From Candidatus Gastranaerophilales bacterium (GTDB lineage Bacteria; Cyanobacteriota; Vampirovibrionia; Gastranaerophilales; Gastranaerophilaceae), in contig CALVBT010000003.1 in NCBI GenBank assembly GCA_944325885.1, positions 228,251 to 292,250 on the forward strand: a DNA stretch of 64,000 bases. The letters run 5' to 3'. The notes under the pieces are model-generated. The model saw only the letters and a program-made list of their open reading frames with translations. It was not told where the DNA came from and did not search any database. Below, one piece after another: positions 38,154 through 61,556 of the stretch. Numbering within the stretch: the stretch's first letter is position 1; each line of letters opens with the position of its first letter. A program made the position numbers and the translations under genes.

Positions 38154-38822
38154 CTACCAGCTGATTTTACCTTCTCTAATCAGCTTTGCAGTACAACCCC
38201 AGCCATTTCCGCCTTCACCTGATTTACAATCATCTTCATTGCACCCCGGACATCCGCCGAGAGGATAAACCTGACCATCGCCGTTAACTGTAAAAGCAAA
38301 AGTATCAACACCCACCATATTAGGCTCTTTTTGTCCGTTCACATCTACTTCAAAATATGCACAACTGTTTTTTACATAATTGCTTTCTGTTCTGTTACAG
38401 CCATTAAATGCTTTTGCAGCCCACAGCATACCATCAGCAGTTGCAAAGGTGTACCAGCCTTTATCTGTTTGATATTTGTTTCCTGCCTGTCCTGCCAGTG
38501 TTTTTTGAGCATATTCATTACCAAAACATCCGCCATTATTTTTACAGTTCTGGGCAATATTAAATTTTTTCATATACATATTAGTAAAAACTTCTTCTGT
38601 ATTAGCCCATGGCCAGAGTTTTATTGGTCCGTATTCCTGTCTTAACTCTTTTGTAGCTGTAGAAACAGTATTGTAAGCCTTTAATACACGAGGGGGAATA
38701 GAACGTTCCTCCGAAACCTTTTGAAGTCCAGGAATTGTCATAGCTGCAATTACACCGATTATCATAAGGGTCACAAGCGTTTCTGCCAGTGTAAACGCTT
38801 TTATCATATTAAATTTTTTCAT
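38154..38822 (-). CDS. Type IV pilin / type II pseudopilin-like protein
   Basis: 222 aa. MKKFNMIKA then FTLAETLVTLMIIGVIAAM: class III signal with Glu5 and a hydrophobic N-terminal helix. The cleavage site has Ala at -1, not the usual Gly. The globular part contains DVNGQKEPNMVGVDTFAF, the same DxNG...PN..G.D motif as the 54-57 kb cluster, and ends WGCTAKLIREGKISW. It is closest to the 56463 protein, sharing IPGLQK, SEER, KAYNTVSTATKELR and EYGPIKLWP. AAAGGAG precedes the ATG. It follows wecB by 18 bases, probably in one operon. Confidence 0.88.
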   Translation of the reverse strand: MKKFNMIKAFTLAETLVTLMIIGVIAAMTIPGLQKVSEERSIPPRVLKAYNTVSTATKELRQEYGPIKLWPWANTEEVFTNMYMKKFNIAQNCKNNGGCFGNEYAQKTLAGQAGNKYQTDKGWYTFATADGMLWAAKAFNGCNRTESNYVKNSCAYFEVDVNGQKEPNMVGVDTFAFTVNGDGQVYPLGGCPGCNEDDCKSGEGGNGWGCTAKLIREGKISW

Positions 38823-54389: not shown

Positions 54390-54427
54390 AAAACCTGTTA
54401 AGAAATAACATAATGGATGGAAATTAT

Positions 54428-55102
54428 ATGAAAAAGACGGTCACTTTATGTGTTAAAAAGAACAAACATTCAAAAGGAGTTTCTAAAGCATTTACTTTAG
54501 CAGAAACACTAATTACTCTGGTTGTAATTGGTGTTGTTGCGGCAATGACAGTTCCTGCTGTAAAAAATCATACAGAAGAAGTTCGATATGTTGCTCAGGT
54601 AAAAAAGGCCTATGCTGATATCAGCAACGCAACAGGTGTACTGGAAACAAAATACGGCGATTGCAGATTCTGGAGCTTCGGAAAAGCAGGCTCATATACA
54701 CAAGACGGAAGTCAGGTCATTGACTGGTACAAACAGGCCATGAACGCAACGCCGACAACAAATTATACATCTAATGCACTTACAAATGAAGGCGGATCAA
54801 ATCCATCTTTTTCAACCGCAGACGGGATGGTATGGGCATTGTTCCCCGGCGGATACAGCTCAGGCGGAGTTGCCCTTGTTGATGTTAATGGAGATGAAGG
54901 ACCAAATGTCAGAGGCGTAGACATACACGGTTTTAGAATCGGTCAAAGCGTGGCTGATAACGAATCCGGAGTATTCGCTTTAGGTGATGGTGTTAATGAC
55001 ACAAATAGTGTCTGGGCATGCACTGCCTATGCATTAAATCACGGAAAAATGCCTTGGTTGTCTGGAGGGGATCCTGATTGCAAAAATTATTACAAAAAAT
55101 AG
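54428..55102 (+). CDS. Type IV pilin/pseudopilin-like protein 1 of the tandem cluster
   Basis: 224 aa from ATG 54428; the ATG at 54413 is an alternative start. A long basic leader (KKNKHSKGVSKA) precedes FTLAETLITLVVIGVVAAM. The mature part has GDCRFWSFGKAGSYTQDG, TADGMVWALFPGG, LVDVNGDEGPNVRGVDIHGF and WACTAYALNHGKMPWLSGGD near the end, with Cys residues able to pair. It is the first of four genes read in the same direction within 2.7 kb, just past the HDOD gene. Confidence 0.87.
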   Translation: MKKTVTLCVKKNKHSKGVSKAFTLAETLITLVVIGVVAAMTVPAVKNHTEEVRYVAQVKKAYADISNATGVLETKYGDCRFWSFGKAGSYTQDGSQVIDWYKQAMNATPTTNYTSNALTNEGGSNPSFSTADGMVWALFPGGYSSGGVALVDVNGDEGPNVRGVDIHGFRIGQSVADNESGVFALGDGVNDTNSVWACTAYALNHGKMPWLSGGDPDCKNYYKK

Positions 55103-55119
55103 AAATTACGGAAGTTTGT

Positions 55120-55764
55120 ATGAAAAAATCAAATAAACAAAAAGCATTTACCTTGGCAGAAACTCTTTTTACACTTGCAATTGTAGGAGTTGTTGCTGCG
55201 CTCACAGTTCCTACGTTAAAGCAGTCTGCTGACGAAGCTACTCACGTTGCTGCAGTAAAAAAGGCTTATGCCATAGCTAAAGAAGCCACAACAAATCTTG
55301 AACAAAAAGAAGGCGACCTCTCAACCTGGCCATGGAATAATACAACACAAATGAATAAGCTGTATCAAAGTGTAATGACAACCATTGGCGGAGATGCCTG
55401 GAAGGCTTATCAAACTTTCCAAATTGACGGGACTAACTGGTCATATATTGGGCCTGATTCATATTTTATGACATCAGACGGGATGACCTGGTATGTATAC
55501 AACTGGAACGCAGGCGCAAAATACGGCTCCGGAGCAACTGTATACGGATGTATTCACGTAGACACAAACGGACCCAAAGAACCTAATGCTCTGGGTGTAG
55601 ATGTACATGCGTTCACTGTTTCTTCTGACGGGGTAAACCCTATGGGCGACGGGCTTCATGACCAGAACAAAACCTGGGCATGCACAAACTATGCTATCAT
55701 GCACAGCAAAATGCCATGGTTAAAAGGAGGAGACACCAACTGTTACTCATATTATGAAGGCTAA
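55120..55764 (+). CDS. Type IV pilin/pseudopilin-like protein 2 of the tandem cluster
   Basis: 214 aa. Start ATG 55120 (MKKSNKQKA then FTLAETLFTLAIVGVVAAL), preceded by GGAAG at 6 bases. An in-frame start at 55078 overlaps the previous gene and is less likely. The body has WPWNNTTQMNKLYQSV, TSDGMTWYVYNW, VDTNGPKEPNALGVDVHAF and the ending WACTNYAIMHSKMPWLKGGD. The end region is clearly related to cluster protein 1, so these two are the closest pair. Confidence 0.87.
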   Translation: MKKSNKQKAFTLAETLFTLAIVGVVAALTVPTLKQSADEATHVAAVKKAYAIAKEATTNLEQKEGDLSTWPWNNTTQMNKLYQSVMTTIGGDAWKAYQTFQIDGTNWSYIGPDSYFMTSDGMTWYVYNWNAGAKYGSGATVYGCIHVDTNGPKEPNALGVDVHAFTVSSDGVNPMGDGLHDQNKTWACTNYAIMHSKMPWLKGGDTNCYSYYEG

Positions 55765-55792
55765 TCACTAAATAAATATAAAGGATAGGATT

Positions 55793-56449
55793 ATGAATAA
55801 AAAAATTAAAGCGTTCACTCTGGCAGAAACACTTGTTACATTAATGATTATCGGTGTAATTGCTGCTATTACAATACCGACATTAAAAGAAAATTCTGAC
55901 AAAGATGCAAACATAGCTCTGCTCAAAAAAGCAAACTCAACAGCAGGCAATATGTTTGCAGACCTCAGAGCAAAATACGGCCCTGCACCGTACTGGACTT
56001 ATAAAGATCAGAGAGTGTTTAAAACAGGACAGGATGCAACAGCAAGAGAACTGTACTCCACATCTTTGAGCCTTGCAAGCAACACACTCCCCTCCGGGTA
56101 CTCTGCAATGAACCTTAAAGGCGAAACTCTGGGCAAAGAAGCAGAAATAGACGGAACAAAAACAGACTTCACAAGACCGCTCATCACGGCTGACGGCATG
56201 ATGTGGTTCCCGTCACAAGGATATGGCAACTGCTCAGGTACAAACAAAAGATGCGGTTTGCTCGCTGTTGACGTAAACGGTGCAAAAAAGCCAAACCGTA
56301 TGGGTGTTGATTTATTTGTATTCAACATTACACCGGACGGTGCTGTTGCACTCGATGTTGATGACTGTAACAATTTATCCGGAGCAGGATATGGCTGCGG
56401 AAAAAAACTGCTCATAGACCCTGATGCATTGAACTTTATATATGAATAA
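55793..56449 (+). CDS. Type IV pilin/pseudopilin-like protein 3 of the tandem cluster
   Basis: 218 aa. MNKKIKA then FTLAETLVTLMIIGVIAAI. The mature part has NSTAGNMFADLRAKYGPAPYW, ITADGMMWFPSQGYGNCSG, LAVDVNGAKKPNRMGVDLFVF and ends YGCGKKLLIDPDALNFIYE, without the Trp-rich ending of the others. AAGGATAGGATT lies directly before the ATG. It overlaps the frame of gene 4 by a few codons if the longer start of gene 4 is used. Confidence 0.87.
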   Translation: MNKKIKAFTLAETLVTLMIIGVIAAITIPTLKENSDKDANIALLKKANSTAGNMFADLRAKYGPAPYWTYKDQRVFKTGQDATARELYSTSLSLASNTLPSGYSAMNLKGETLGKEAEIDGTKTDFTRPLITADGMMWFPSQGYGNCSGTNKRCGLLAVDVNGAKKPNRMGVDLFVFNITPDGAVALDVDDCNNLSGAGYGCGKKLLIDPDALNFIYE

Positions 56450-56462
56450 CAAGGAAAAACAT

Positions 56463-57122
56463 ATGAAGAATAAAAAAATTAAAGCGTTCACTTTAGCAGA
56501 AACACTTGTTACATTAATGATTATCGGTGTAATTGCTGCTATGACTATTCCGGGGCTGCAAAAAACTTCGGAAGAAAGAACTGTTCCTCCAAAAGTTCTT
56601 AAAGCATACAATACTGTTTCTACAGCGACAAAAGAGCTGAGAGCAGAATACGGACCGATAAAACTATGGCCGTTTAATAATGTCACAAAACTTATGGATG
56701 AAATGTACATCCCTAAGTTTAATGTAACGAAAAACTGTAAAACAGACGGAGGCTGTTATAAAGCAGGATACCAGCCAAAATCGCTGAATGGTGCGAACAA
56801 CAACGATTTTCAAAACGGCAGCGGTTGGTATACATTTGTGACTGCTGACGGTATGTATTGGGCTGTCGGCGGCGGCAATGGCACCTGTTCTTATACAGAA
56901 GGAACATATATCAAAAAAGGATGTATCCATTTTGAAGTAGATGTAAACGGGCCAAAAGACCCGAATATGATAGGTATTGATATATTTGGTTTTGAAGTTT
57001 CGCCTGACAGCGTATATCCATTTGGCGGATGCCCCGGATGTGACACATCCAGCTGCAGCTCAAGCGGCAACGGCTGGGGATGCACAGCAAGAATTATTAA
57101 AGAAGGCAAAATCAGCTGGTAA
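56463..57122 (+). CDS. Type IV pilin/pseudopilin-like protein 4 of the tandem cluster
   Basis: 219 aa from ATG 56463 (MKNKKIKA then FTLAETLVTLMIIGVIAAM), with AAGGA 7 bases upstream. TADGMYWAVGGGNGTC, FEVDVNGPKDPNMIGIDIFGF, GGCPGCDTSSCSSSGNGWGC and GKISW at the end. It is a near twin of the isolated protein at 38154 (shared SEER, PP.VLKAYNTVSTATKELR, EYGPIKLWP), so one probably arose by a copy of the other. A terminator follows. Confidence 0.88.
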   Translation: MKNKKIKAFTLAETLVTLMIIGVIAAMTIPGLQKTSEERTVPPKVLKAYNTVSTATKELRAEYGPIKLWPFNNVTKLMDEMYIPKFNVTKNCKTDGGCYKAGYQPKSLNGANNNDFQNGSGWYTFVTADGMYWAVGGGNGTCSYTEGTYIKKGCIHFEVDVNGPKDPNMIGIDIFGFEVSPDSVYPFGGCPGCDTSSCSSSGNGWGCTARIIKEGKISW

Positions 57123-57208: not shown

Positions 57209-57955
57209 TTACTTGTCAGTCATAATAAAGAGGCTTATGAGGTCATTTAATGCAATAGCCTGTTTTTTATAATCCTGAACCTGTTTTTCAAGAGTTTTAA
57301 TATTGCTTTTGTATTCGTTGATTTTTGTCATGCATACTTTCGCGCTCTGCGTGAGGCTGTCTTGACCCTGCTGGGCTTCTTTAAGCACACTGTTCATAGA
57401 GATACCGAGAGCTTCCATAGTCTGGCGTATAATCTGTGCGCCTGTTTGTTTTGTGACACCTTGCGGGAGCTGCATAATCAACCTTTTTAGCACTGCAACA
57501 TTTGCAGGCATAGTATAATTTTTTTGTGGTGGTACACCTGGAATTCTTTGTTGTGCTGCGTTATTAAACATTTCTTTTTCGTCAAACATTGTTGTATCCG
57601 TTTCTTCAAAATTTAAGTTCTGTGTAATATTGGTCGGGAACGGTTCGTCAAAATCGCTCTCATTTGCATTGTCCAACTCAGTATCAAGGGAGTTGTCCAT
57701 GTAGTCTTCCAGCTGCTGAGGAGCATCCTCTTCGAGAGTAAAATCAGCAAAGTCACTGCCAAGACTAATATTGTCAGTAATAGTTTCGGAAATTTCTTCC
57801 GGTGCATCTGATTGTACAGGTACAGGTTCCGGTTCTTTTATTAAAGAACTGTTATCCGTACTGTCAGGTATAGGCTGTATTTCGATTTCAGCTTGTTTTT
57901 TCAGAGCCTCGACTATTTTTTTACCCACACCTGATGGAAGTTTGTTTTCTGCCAT
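57209..57955 (-). CDS. Hypothetical acidic protein with C-terminal coiled coil (248 aa)
   Basis: No family recognised. A short basic start (KLPSGVGKKIVEALKKQ) is followed by a very acidic, disordered stretch (about 25-130, rich in Asp/Glu/Pro). A helical domain at about 148-195 follows (NVAVLKRLIMQLPQGVTKQTGAQIIRQTMEALGISM), then a coiled coil to the end (KINEYKSNIKTLEKQVQDYKKQ). The layout is like an adaptor or polar scaffold. AAGGTTAG precedes the ATG. Confidence 0.68.
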   Translation of the reverse strand: MAENKLPSGVGKKIVEALKKQAEIEIQPIPDSTDNSSLIKEPEPVPVQSDAPEEISETITDNISLGSDFADFTLEEDAPQQLEDYMDNSLDTELDNANESDFDEPFPTNITQNLNFEETDTTMFDEKEMFNNAAQQRIPGVPPQKNYTMPANVAVLKRLIMQLPQGVTKQTGAQIIRQTMEALGISMNSVLKEAQQGQDSLTQSAKVCMTKINEYKSNIKTLEKQVQDYKKQAIALNDLISLFIMTDK

Positions 57956-58104: not shown

Positions 58105-59850
58105 TTAATTTAAATAAGCACCAAAAGCCGCAAAAGTTTTTGTATCAGGCTCCAGAGGTTGAGCAAAAGGCTCTGCAGCAACCTTCATTGTCTGTTTTTC
58201 CTGCGGTTGTTTTGCTGATTTTTTGCCCTCAACAGCTTTTGTTATAGCGATATTGAGTTTTGGTATACCCCAGCCGAGTACAACACCTGAGTAGATATAG
58301 CCCAATAACTGAGCATAGTTTTTATACTTGAGCTGTTTTATTGCCTTCTGTGCAATTTCTTTATGCGCGCCGTCAGCTTTAGCTGCTTTTTTAACCTCAT
58401 TCATGAGTTTTTTGAACGGAATTTTCTTATCTCCGTCCATCACTTTGATATTGAGTTTTTCAAGTACCGGATAAAGAATTTCTTCGTGTGTTTTTTCTAC
58501 GGATTTTGTAATGTAATTCCAAAGACCTTTGCCGTGGATTTTTTCGGAATAGTTTACAATATTCTTATCCATTGCTTTTGCAGCAAGTTTTGAAACAAAA
58601 CCGCCCAGTATCAGCCAGTTTGCAAAGCCAAGAGTATCTTTAATAATTGATTCTCTTGTTTCGTTTTTGTCACGTGCTGCAAATATACGGCTCATAATAG
58701 TCATGCCGTAAATAAATTTGAACTGGTCTAAAGTAGGAACAGCACCTCTGTACTGAAGTTTTGACAACAGTTCCGGGCCTGCTTTTTTAAGGTTTGTATA
58801 AAGTTCTGAAGGATGTTTCAGAATAGTAGCAATCATTGCAGAGCCGATACCCACGCCCAGAACAGCTTTCATTACCTTAAAGCCGAAGGATTTGTCCGGT
58901 TCTCTGCCTTCTACTCCGACAAAACCGTCAGAGCCTGTACGTTTTTTGGTCAAATATCTGTTTATCGGCTGAACGCTCATACCGACACCCACAGGTATTG
59001 CCAAACCGGCAGCAACCGTAGCTACTTTTTTGTTTTTAACACCTTTGAGGAATTTATCCAAATCTTTTACAATGTCTGTTTTGTCATGAGCAGCTTTGTC
59101 CAGAACGGTTTTTCTTAAAGAAAATGCGTTGTGGATAAGATTTTCGATAGAACCTTCAACATTTGTTGCTACTTTTTCACCGTTTTGTGCTGATGCATAC
59201 ACTTTGAAGGTAGAGCCTGCACCTGTTTCTTTAGTAACGATTTCTACTGCTTTTGCCAGTGCTGATTTTGGTGTTTGATATTTTTCCGTACCGGCATCTA
59301 CCATGACTTTTGCAGCATCTTTAACAGCCTGTTCACTCAGCGTTTTCCAGCCTTCAGCACCGTTAGTTGTATTTAAGCCCTCGAGTCCTTTAAAGAAGGT
59401 TTCCCAGTATTTTGTTGCATCATATTTGCCGTTTTCGCCTACGCTGTTGGCCATAAATTTGCCAAAAGTATCGATAGTGTCGCTGTTAGCAAATACAAGA
59501 TGAGTTTTTACTCCGTTAGCTCTGTTAAAAGCAGAAGAAACAACATATCCTGCTCCCAACCCGACTATGCCGGCAAAAGCATGATTTAATGTACCAGAAG
59601 ATTCTCTGATACCTGTTTCCATACCTGCATCTTTTGAACGAGAAAAGTCAACAATAGTTCTTGGCATAACCATAGAGAAAAAGTCGACAAAACAAGCTCC
59701 TATTGCAGGGCTTGTATTCAACCAGTTCAGAGTTTGGGTACCCAGCTCTACGGGGCCTTTAAAACTCGGGTTGTTATTATGTTTATTCAAATTGTTTTTT
59801 TGTGATGACTGTGATGTTTTCGGTTGTAATTGTGTAATTCGGGAAATCAT
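58105..59850 (-). CDS. Large hypothetical FKG-motif protein 1 (581 aa)
   Basis: No known family. Polar Asn/Gln/Ser-rich N-terminus, then NPSFKG at residues about 27-32, followed by LNTSPAIGACFVDFFSMVMPRTIVDF and RESSGTLNHAF. Hydrophobic stretches at about 90-105, 275-293 and 330-350. Later blocks: MSVQPINRYLTKKRTGSDG, LDQFKFIYGMTIMSRIFAARDKNETRESI, WLILGGFVSKLAAKA. The Lys/Pro-rich end closes AFGAYLN. It is 14 bases behind its paralog (59865) in the same direction. AAGGCG lies just before the ATG. Membrane association is likely from the hydrophobic blocks. Confidence 0.75.
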   Translation of the reverse strand: MISRITQLQPKTSQSSQKNNLNKHNNNPSFKGPVELGTQTLNWLNTSPAIGACFVDFFSMVMPRTIVDFSRSKDAGMETGIRESSGTLNHAFAGIVGLGAGYVVSSAFNRANGVKTHLVFANSDTIDTFGKFMANSVGENGKYDATKYWETFFKGLEGLNTTNGAEGWKTLSEQAVKDAAKVMVDAGTEKYQTPKSALAKAVEIVTKETGAGSTFKVYASAQNGEKVATNVEGSIENLIHNAFSLRKTVLDKAAHDKTDIVKDLDKFLKGVKNKKVATVAAGLAIPVGVGMSVQPINRYLTKKRTGSDGFVGVEGREPDKSFGFKVMKAVLGVGIGSAMIATILKHPSELYTNLKKAGPELLSKLQYRGAVPTLDQFKFIYGMTIMSRIFAARDKNETRESIIKDTLGFANWLILGGFVSKLAAKAMDKNIVNYSEKIHGKGLWNYITKSVEKTHEEILYPVLEKLNIKVMDGDKKIPFKKLMNEVKKAAKADGAHKEIAQKAIKQLKYKNYAQLLGYIYSGVVLGWGIPKLNIAITKAVEGKKSAKQPQEKQTMKVAAEPFAQPLEPDTKTFAAFGAYLN

Positions 59851-59864
59851 AAATTCGCCTTAAA

Positions 59865-61556
59865 TTATTTTTTATCTGACATCATATTACCAAACGCCTG
59901 AAAAGTTTTTTTGTTGCTAGTTGAATTTATTTCAGGGAAGGAAATAAGATTTTTTAACCTTTCTCTAATTTTCATTTGTTCTTTTCGTTCGGTTTCCTTT
60001 CTTACATACCACGGAACAAGAATACCGAGTACCAGCATGGAGAATCCGAGTGAACTTACTTCGCATATCGCTCTGAGGCCTTTTGCAGACTTGCCGCCCG
60101 CATATTTTTTACCGTTTTGTGCAACGCCGTCCACTATAGCGTTTGCCTCATCAAAGCTCTTGAGTTTTGTATCTTTAACCCAGTATACAAACTTCTTGAG
60201 CGGGTTCTTGGTGTCCGGTCTGTCTTTCATATAATTCAGAAGAGGAACACCCTTCACTTTTTGCATTATAGTACCAACAGCTTTAGAAACATAGTCTCCT
60301 AAGAAATACAAACTGGAGAATGTTGCAATATCTCTCCAGGTAACTTCGTGGAGTTCATTTTCATCCTCAGAAGCAAGCATACGGCTGGCAAAAGTAGAAG
60401 TAGCAATCCATCTGCACTGGTCCATTGACGGCATATTTTTTGTAAACTGGAGCATTTTCAAGCTCGGCTTTTTCATCATAGAAAGGATTGCAACACCTAC
60501 CATAAGTCCTGCTGCGCCGAGTTTCTTTGTCCAGAAAGCAGATTTTTGAGCAGGTGTCATTTCTTCACGTTCTTTGCCTTTGCCAAAGTTTTTATAAATC
60601 GGTGCGCCTTCCTGACCTGAGGATTTTCTTGTTATCCATCTGTTGATAGACTGCATTGAAGCAGCAAGAGGAATAACTACAGCCAGACCGAGAAGGCTCT
60701 TTTTGTTGACAAATTTTATAGCCTTTTTAACAAATGCTTCGATTTTTGCATTGTCGCATTTGTAATCGTGTATGAACTTTTGACCTACATCAATACCATC
60801 TCTGAGCATTGTGGAGATAGAATCGTGGTAAACTTTTTCGCCTGTTCTTTCAAATGCCTTAACGCCGTTTTTAACAACGGTTTTATAATCACCGATTTTT
60901 ATGTGTTCTGCGCCGCCTGTAACCTGCAGAATTTTGTTATACAGGCCGTCACGTGCAGCTTTAACAACTTTTTTATCCTTAACGTTGTCCTGAATTACAC
61001 GTTTGTATTCGCTGATTTCTTTTTCGAGTTCTTTAGTGTTCAAAGGAATCCATGCGGCTTTATTTGCCTGACCTGCGCCCTTGCTGTTCAAGACCTTTGC
61101 GTCATTCAACAACAAATCAACAAACTGGTCAGCAGCTTTTGGAGAATTTTTTATATCATGGAAGTGCTGCTGGAATGTTTCCAGTGCATCCTGATTTGCC
61201 CACATGCCGGAAAGCCCTTTGCTGTTTTTATCAAACGCTTCCAGAAGTTTTGCTGCGCCCAAAACAATAAAACCTGGGATTAAGCAGTTTACAACAAGAC
61301 CGGAAGACTCACGGCGGAACGTTTCTGCAGCAGCGAACCCGTTTGTTTTTGCATCAACATAAGTACGGGGCAAAATAGCTGTCGCCATATCAATAAGCGA
61401 AACACCTGCCATCGGGTTTGTGTTGCAATATTGAAGCACTGCTGTTGTACCTTCGATAAGCCCTTTAAAATTCGGGTCTGAAGAATTTTTGTATGAAGGA
61501 GCGTTTTGTCCTTTTTTGTAAACTTCCTGATTGTTTAAACTTACTTTGTTTATCAT
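59865..61556 (-). CDS. Large hypothetical FKG-motif protein 2 (563 aa), paralog of 58105
   Basis: Start set at ATG 61556 (MINKVSLNNQEVYKKG). With it DPNFKG falls at the same offset as NPSFKG in protein 1, which supports the choice; an upstream frame to 61655 would add 33 residues. Shared blocks: NTNPMAGVSLIDMATAILPRTYVDA, RRESSGLVVN, SMQSINRWITRKSSGQEG, MDQCRWIATSTFASRMLASEDENELHEV, LGDYVSKAVG. Hydrophobic segments at about 95-110, 290-305, 355-370 and 500-520. The end, QAFGNMM, parallels AFGAYLN in protein 1. No clear ribosome site. Function unknown. Confidence 0.75.
   Translation of the reverse strand: MINKVSLNNQEVYKKGQNAPSYKNSSDPNFKGLIEGTTAVLQYCNTNPMAGVSLIDMATAILPRTYVDAKTNGFAAAETFRRESSGLVVNCLIPGFIVLGAAKLLEAFDKNSKGLSGMWANQDALETFQQHFHDIKNSPKAADQFVDLLLNDAKVLNSKGAGQANKAAWIPLNTKELEKEISEYKRVIQDNVKDKKVVKAARDGLYNKILQVTGGAEHIKIGDYKTVVKNGVKAFERTGEKVYHDSISTMLRDGIDVGQKFIHDYKCDNAKIEAFVKKAIKFVNKKSLLGLAVVIPLAASMQSINRWITRKSSGQEGAPIYKNFGKGKEREEMTPAQKSAFWTKKLGAAGLMVGVAILSMMKKPSLKMLQFTKNMPSMDQCRWIATSTFASRMLASEDENELHEVTWRDIATFSSLYFLGDYVSKAVGTIMQKVKGVPLLNYMKDRPDTKNPLKKFVYWVKDTKLKSFDEANAIVDGVAQNGKKYAGGKSAKGLRAICEVSSLGFSMLVLGILVPWYVRKETERKEQMKIRERLKNLISFPEINSTSNKKTFQAFGNMMSDKK

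What the first reader, a model, noticed from the sequence alone, without database searches (positions are those of the whole stretch)
58105..61556. Tandem pair of large paralogs with an FKG motif at a fixed position near the N-terminus
The two proteins (581 and 563 aa) share about six blocks, among them PRT.VD, RESSG, the QxINR....R.(S/T)G block and the DQ......SR..A..D.NE block. In each, a polar N-terminus ends in (N/D)P(S/N)FKG at residue 27-32. The short polar leader plus FKG looks like a sorting or processing tag, and I recall similar tags in gut Melainabacteria proteins. The function is undescribed as far as I can tell.
Basis: partly seen in the sequence, partly recalled or inferred. Interest (0 to 1): 0.65.

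Follow-up and report, generated by a model that had tools for sequence, protein, structure and literature searches.

The report
Lineage-wide FKG leader on paired proteins
Two neighbouring, related proteins of a gut bacterium start with a short polar stretch ending in Phe-Lys-Gly, and dozens of unrelated proteins of the same bacterial group carry the same ending, so it looks like an undescribed address label, perhaps for export through a little-noticed second secretion machine.

Summary
The two ORFs are true paralogues (26% identity, 2e-33) at the stated place, each with FKG at residues 30-32. They form a syntenic tandem pair in one non-photosynthetic cyanobacterial order (Gastranaerophilales), with no Pfam, NCBIfam or PDB sequence relative and no clear fold match. 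In 21-25 orthologues of each, the leader drifts and slides but the Phe is invariant.

The tag idea is supported. Across 1.25 Mb of the host genome, [IVLP][SN]FK[GAS] occurs 21 times in residues 3-62 (1.7 in shuffles) and 6 times elsewhere. A related form was absent near N-termini of 338 cyanobacterial genes. Tagged proteins rarely have a Sec-type N-terminus (2/47 against 222/1069); most are unknown, plus nucleotidases, a PLD nuclease and a dGTPase.

The function is not shown. Best guess: a leader for non-Sec export, probably through a second type III export core found in 39/40 genomes of the family, flagellated or not. For it: leader chemistry, Ile at position 3, missing Sec signals, some gene neighbourhoods. 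Against it: spacing is often too short for known type III signals, the sister family has the core but showed no tag in a small sample, and some tagged enzymes look cytosolic.

The parts
59865..61556 (-). P0002, 563-aa first gene of the tandem pair (transcribed first), mostly helical, several hydrophobic stretches, no known family
58105..59850 (-). P0001, 581-aa second gene of the pair, paralogue of P0002, no known family
61461..61475 (-). PNFKG (residues 28-32) of P0002; F30 and G32 invariant in 21 orthologues; predicted helix starts at residue 33
61476..61556 (-). polar leader of P0002, residues 1-27, variable in orthologues, low confidence (disordered) in the model
59755..59769 (-). PSFKG (residues 28-32) of P0001; F30 invariant in 25 orthologues; predicted helix starts at residue 33
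59770..59850 (-). polar leader of P0001, residues 1-27; no acidic residue in residues 1-29; low confidence in the model
59889..59909 (-). C-terminal KTFQAFG of P0002 (residues 550-556), conserved in an otherwise variable tail
58123..58140 (-). C-terminal KTFAAF of P0001 (residues 571-576), conserved in an otherwise variable tail
57209..57955 (-). 248-aa gene just downstream of the pair, conserved in that place in relatives; its homologues lie beside the second type III export operon in three other genera (E 1e-44 to 2e-33)

Best explanation
Shown: the pair belongs to an order-specific protein family, and both members carry a lineage-wide N-terminal leader: a short, polar, Asn/Ser-rich, acid-poor and probably unfolded stretch, often with Ile at residue 3 and Ile/Val at residue 6, ending in (I/V/L/P)(S/N)F(K/G)(G/A/S) just before the folded part. 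Inferred: the leader is an address label read by a protein machine, with the Phe as the main contact. Inferred with less certainty: the label directs proteins lacking a Sec signal out of the cytoplasm through the second type III export core (FlhA2, FlhB2, FliP2, FliI/FliH/FliF/FliE-like proteins) kept by nearly every genome of the family, working in the manner of the two-part export signals of early flagellar subunits (a non-polar extreme N-terminus plus a downstream Phe motif). On this view P0002 and P0001, with several hydrophobic helices, would be exported proteins that insert into a membrane. The last step is a guess.
For: Tag real and protein-level: 21 observed against 1.7 in shuffles and 6 in the rest of the proteins; codons of the motif vary and ribosome sites lie upstream of the leader start; Phe invariant in both ortholog sets; 5'-nucleotidase orthologues keep the motif in 4 of 5, behind different leaders. 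Not Sec: N-terminal hydrophobic stretch in 2/47 tagged against 222/1069 others. Leader chemistry: acid-poor, Asn/Ser-rich; hydrophobic at residue 3 in 51% against 29%. Machine: FlhA-type protein in 39/40 genomes; a distinct second copy of 78-82% identity between genera, present also where the flagellar copy is missing, 38% identical to the flagellar copy of the same genome; its operon has FliE, FliF, FliH and a type III ATPase, with a second FlhB and FliP elsewhere. Links: the gene downstream of the pair has homologues beside that operon in three genomes; 5'-nucleotidases without a Sec signal lie next to the second FlhB in two genomes, and a third has one about 0.9 kb from it. Published two-part signal: PMC8983047.
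Against: Known early-subunit signals need at least about 26 residues between the two parts (PMC8983047); here the Phe lies anywhere from about residue 6 to 55. Hydrophobic at Phe+4 is only weakly raised (39% against 29%, p = 0.085). The sister family in the class has the export core but no tag in a small sample (165 genes). Some tagged enzymes (dGTPase, radical-SAM-like, glycogen-synthase-like) are usually cytosolic. Nucleotidases beside the second FlhB have polar leaders but no Phe motif. No secretin beyond one per genome. Tagged genes are not clustered.
Confidence: 0.33

Rival explanations
1. Intracellular docking label: the Phe motif binds a scaffold, chaperone or membrane hub inside the cell and gathers a set of proteins in one place, with no export.
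For: Several tagged proteins look like cytosolic enzymes: dGTPase with an untagged paralogue in the same genome, glycogen-synthase-like, radical-SAM-like. The variable distance from the start fits a short linear binding motif better than a secretion signal. A second Phe motif, KTFxAF, sits at the C-terminus of the pair.
Against: The motif is tied to the N-terminus with a leader of its own composition and start (MKIN-like), and is not enriched at C-termini. 5'-nucleotidases and NucT/PLD-type nucleases are usually exported in other bacteria (general knowledge).
Confidence: 0.3
2. Processed leader: a dedicated protease cuts after the small residue, (S/N)F(K/G)(G/A/S), removing the leader, alone or as part of an export route of unknown type.
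For: A small residue at the end of the motif and a free, disordered leader in front of the first helix (residue 33) in both models.
Against: No clear preference at the position after the motif; no candidate protease was sought here.
Confidence: 0.2
3. Ordinary family-level feature: the motif in the pair is inherited within one family, and its presence on other proteins reflects low-complexity N-termini or start-site errors.
For: Gene starts were called by a simple script; the motif alphabet was refined after looking; one tagged case, a sigma factor, was chance since its orthologues lack the motif. In the stretches fetched last the strict motif alone was not significant (1 against 2).
Against: Composition-preserving shuffles give 1.7 against 21 observed; Tyr or Leu in place of Phe is not enriched; the broader motif holds in the later stretches (8 against 10, 4-fold, p = 0.0055) and in relatives (12 against 6, 7.4-fold, p = 4e-5); tagged proteins belong to many unrelated families.
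Confidence: 0.07
4. The leader is an internal Shine-Dalgarno or other DNA-level element (TTTAAAGG) with the true start downstream.
For: FKG can be encoded with AAAGG.
Against: Codons vary freely, SFGA and SFTG forms do not contain it, no start codon follows at the right distance in the pair, and annotated starts have ribosome sites upstream.
Confidence: 0.02

Closest known systems
Export signals of early flagellar rod/hook subunits (non-polar N-terminus plus gate recognition motif with Phe; PMC8983047)
   Same: A non-polar residue at position 3 to 7, an unfolded polar linker, a Phe motif downstream, no Sec signal.
   Different: The distance is often below 26 residues; Phe is followed by K/G and a small residue; carried by dozens of unrelated proteins; the fourth residue after Phe is only weakly hydrophobic.
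Short N-terminal host-export motifs of eukaryotic parasites (PEXEL, RxLR; from general knowledge)
   Same: A short motif at a loose distance from the N-terminus on many lineage-specific proteins.
   Different: Bacterial; no upstream Sec-type signal; another sequence; no evidence of a host target.
Type IV prepilin leader (KAFTLAE...), frequent in the same window
   Same: A short N-terminal element recurring on many proteins of this genome.
   Different: Prepilins have a following hydrophobic helix; the FKG proteins do not.
Flagellar gene remnants reported in non-motile Gastranaerophilales (PMC4040986, PMC3787301)
   Same: The export-core genes seen here are likely part of what those papers counted as incomplete flagellar sets.
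   Different: Here the second FlhA is near-universal and 78-82% identical between genera, so it looks maintained rather than decaying.

Membership tests
Early flagellar / type III export signal | Small non-polar residue within residues 3-7 | tested here: met
   Residue 3 hydrophobic in 51% of tagged against 29% of all; Ile most frequent; the pair has I2/I5 and I2/V5.
Early flagellar / type III export signal | Phe motif with hydrophobic residue four places on | tested here: inconclusive
   39% against 29% background, p = 0.085; both window proteins fit (V34, I34), many orthologues do not.
Early flagellar / type III export signal | At least about 26 residues between the two parts | tested here: not met
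   Phe ranges from about residue 6 to 55 across the tagged set; met in the window pair only approximately.
Early flagellar / type III export signal | Actual export | not testable with these tools
   Needs fractionation or a reporter.
Injectisome-type type III secretion system | Export gate, ATPase and inner ring proteins besides the flagellar set | tested here: met
   Second FlhA, FlhB, FliP, T3SS ATPase, FliH, FliF/YscJ, FliE.
Injectisome-type type III secretion system | A secretin of its own in the outer membrane | tested here: not met
   One secretin per family genome tested, not in the operon.
Sec / lipoprotein signal peptides | N-terminal hydrophobic core | tested here: not met
   2/47 tagged against 222/1069.
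Any Pfam or NCBIfam family, for the pair | Match over the curated cut-off | tested here: not met
Known fold, for the pair | Clear structural match | tested here: inconclusive
   Models of pLDDT 70-71; best Z 4.9 and 6.6 (rmsd 6.5 over 205, membrane pyrophosphatase), within the range of common helical arrangements.

The most novel reading that the evidence does not exclude
A large group of animal-gut, non-photosynthetic relatives of cyanobacteria exports a lineage-specific set of proteins (roughly 50-100 per genome) through an overlooked non-flagellar type III machine, using a readable Phe-based N-terminal label, with P0002/P0001 as membrane-inserting members of the set.
Probability: 0.2. Interest if true: 0.9.

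Novelty: new variant of a known kind. Interest (0 to 1): 0.62.

Why it matters
If the label is an export signal, it gives a sequence handle to read the secreted proteins of an uncultured gut lineage whose dealings with its host are unknown, and it suggests that genes described as leftovers of a flagellum belong to a maintained secretion machine. If it is an internal docking label instead, it points to an undescribed hub that organises dozens of proteins. Either way the claim can be tested with a reporter or a pull-down.

Tried and rejected
Sequence families: no Pfam, NCBIfam or PDB relative of the pair. Fold searches of both models gave no clear match: weak hits to membrane pyrophosphatases and other helical proteins only, so no function is drawn from them. 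Phage or viral origin: no match. Unsupervised motif search on all N-termini drifted to Sec signals and was dropped. DNA-level explanation (internal ribosome site): rejected on codons. Sigma-factor tag: chance, not kept in orthologues. Clustering of tagged genes: none, 3 adjacent pairs against 2.7 expected. C-terminal occurrence of the tag across the proteome: not enriched. Contractile injection as the route: Baseplate_J in only 8 of 40 genomes, so not general; not followed further. A FlhA tree was built, but its branch lengths look unreliable and only pairwise identities are used.

Full report
What is there. The two ORFs are real, on the minus strand, 14 bases apart, 563 and 581 aa. BLASTP aligns them over 479 residues at 26% identity, E = 2e-33. 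Each has FKG at residues 30-32 after a polar leader: no acidic residue in the first 29 of P0001, two in P0002. AlphaFold2 models from 25 and 21 orthologues (pLDDT 71 and 70, pTM 0.64 and 0.65) are mainly helical. The leader is unresolved and the first helix after it begins at residue 33 in both, right after FKG. Hydrophobic stretches occur in both (for example P0001 326-344 and P0002 87-105 and 496-514), so insertion into a membrane is plausible but not shown.

Relatives. A scan of one genome per species found 24 orthologous loci, nearly all titled Candidatus Gastranaerophilales. In all of them the two genes lie together in the same order. A profile search of 292 genomes of the phylum found the family in 125: 124 in the host's own taxonomic family and one in another family of the same order, with none seen elsewhere. 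The leader varies in sequence and length between orthologues while F30 is invariant in 25/25 and 21/21, and G32 in 21/21 of the P0002 group. Deep branches have FTG. So the position is not fixed, but the Phe is. A second element, KTFxAF, is nearly invariant at both C-termini.

Is the motif general? Stretches of the host genome were read in steps to 1.25 Mb of 2.17 Mb and genes called with a simple script. In the first 864 kb, [IVLP][SN]FK[GAS] was found 20 times in residues 3-60 and 4 times in the far larger remainder, 23-fold, p = 5e-12. In all 1.25 Mb it was 21 against 6, 16.6-fold, p = 1e-11. Shuffling each N-terminus 300 times gave a mean of 1.7 and a maximum of 6 against 21; replacing Phe by Tyr or Leu removed the effect. 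Caveats: the alphabet was refined after looking. In the 388 kb read last, the strict motif alone was too rare to test (1 against 2), but the broader [IVLP][SNAT]F[KGTR][GAS] held (8 against 10, 4.0-fold, p = 0.0055). In flanks of the relatives, [IVLP][SN]F[KG][GAS] was 12 against 6, 7.4-fold, p = 4e-5, though some of those genes are orthologues of one another. That pattern occurred in residues 3-60 of none of 273 genes from two cyanobacterial genomes and 65 genes from a third genome of the phylum, and of 1 of 165 genes in the sister family; 80-kb samples of other genera are too small to judge one by one.

What the label looks like. Codons of the motif vary and ribosome sites precede the leader start, so selection is on the protein. 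Aligned on Phe, tagged proteins show P/V/I at -2, S/N at -1, K/G at +1 and a small residue at +2; residue 3 is hydrophobic in 51% against 29% of all, mostly Ile, and residue 6 is often Ile or Val (the set was chosen by the motif, so only positions outside -1 to +2 are informative). The leader is rich in Asn and Ser and poor in Asp and Glu. Only 2 of 47 tagged proteins have an N-terminal hydrophobic stretch, against 222 of 1069 others.

Who carries it. Many tagged proteins match no Pfam family. Those that do include two 5'-nucleotidases, a PLD nuclease-like protein, a dGTPase, a glycogen-synthase-like protein, an amylase-like protein, an HNH protein, TPR proteins and, in a relative, an M2/M3-like peptidase. 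Orthologues of one 5'-nucleotidase keep the motif in 4 of 5 with unrelated leaders (NFKG, SFDG, SFGG, SFKG); the glycogen-synthase-like protein varies (SFGS, TFSA, SFKG). A sigma factor with SFKS does not keep it and is taken as chance. Tagged genes are scattered.

A candidate machine. FlhA-type proteins occur in 39 of 40 genomes of the family: a flagellar copy in about half, and a second full-length copy in nearly all. The second copy is 78-82% identical between genera, 38% identical to the flagellar copy in the same genome, and 46% identical to the copy in the sister family. Its operon holds FliE-, FliF/YscJ- and FliH-like proteins and a type III ATPase. Second copies of FlhB and FliP follow the same pattern: two in flagellated genomes, one in others. 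There is one secretin per family genome tested, so a classical injectisome is not indicated. Earlier papers described non-motile members as having incomplete flagellar gene sets (PMC4040986, PMC3787301); I found no paper describing this core as a secretion system, within a library that lacks most subscription journals. Links to the tag are modest. The gene just downstream of the pair (57209-57955) has homologues beside this operon in three genera. Sec-less 5'-nucleotidases lie next to the second FlhB in two genomes, and by coordinates within about 0.9 kb of it in a third, although the two that could be read have polar leaders without the Phe motif.

Reading. That the leader is a lineage-wide label is well supported, and I put that alone at about 0.9. 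What reads it is open. I prefer export through the second type III core because of the leader chemistry, the non-polar start, the lack of Sec signals, the presence of enzymes usually found outside the cytoplasm, and the neighbourhoods. Known two-part signals of early flagellar subunits combine a non-polar N-terminus with a Phe motif at least about 26 residues on (PMC8983047). The label here resembles that, but its spacing often fails the rule, so it is not filed as a member. An internal docking label is almost as likely, given the cytosolic-looking enzymes and the loose spacing. A cleaved leader is a third option.

Noticed in passing
L185:7889-15260 (G000 contig C12); L202:9675-10772: A second, strongly conserved type III export core in the host and 39/40 genomes of its family, including genomes without the flagellar FlhA; earlier papers count such genes as incomplete flagella.
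   Followed up: partly
L011:12383-13843: A third FHIPEP protein of about 490 aa with only the C-terminal FlhA part, next to a PSP1-domain gene and downstream of ribosomal protein genes; a similar ~490-aa FHIPEP fragment recurs in most genomes of the family searched.
   Followed up: no
L011:11501-11833: A small gene starting MSINPVSFGK sits inside the ribosomal protein operon.
   Followed up: no
window 54413-57122 and 38154-38822: Several prepilin-like genes with a KAFTLAE leader, four of them in a row on the plus strand beside the pair; the genome has many more.
   Followed up: no
L174:13121-14518 and C3a 66206-67420: Two dGTPase-like genes in one genome, one with the Phe label and one without.
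   Followed up: partly
window 58123-58140 and 59889-59909: Conserved C-terminal KTFxAF element in both proteins of the pair, of unknown role.
   Followed up: partly
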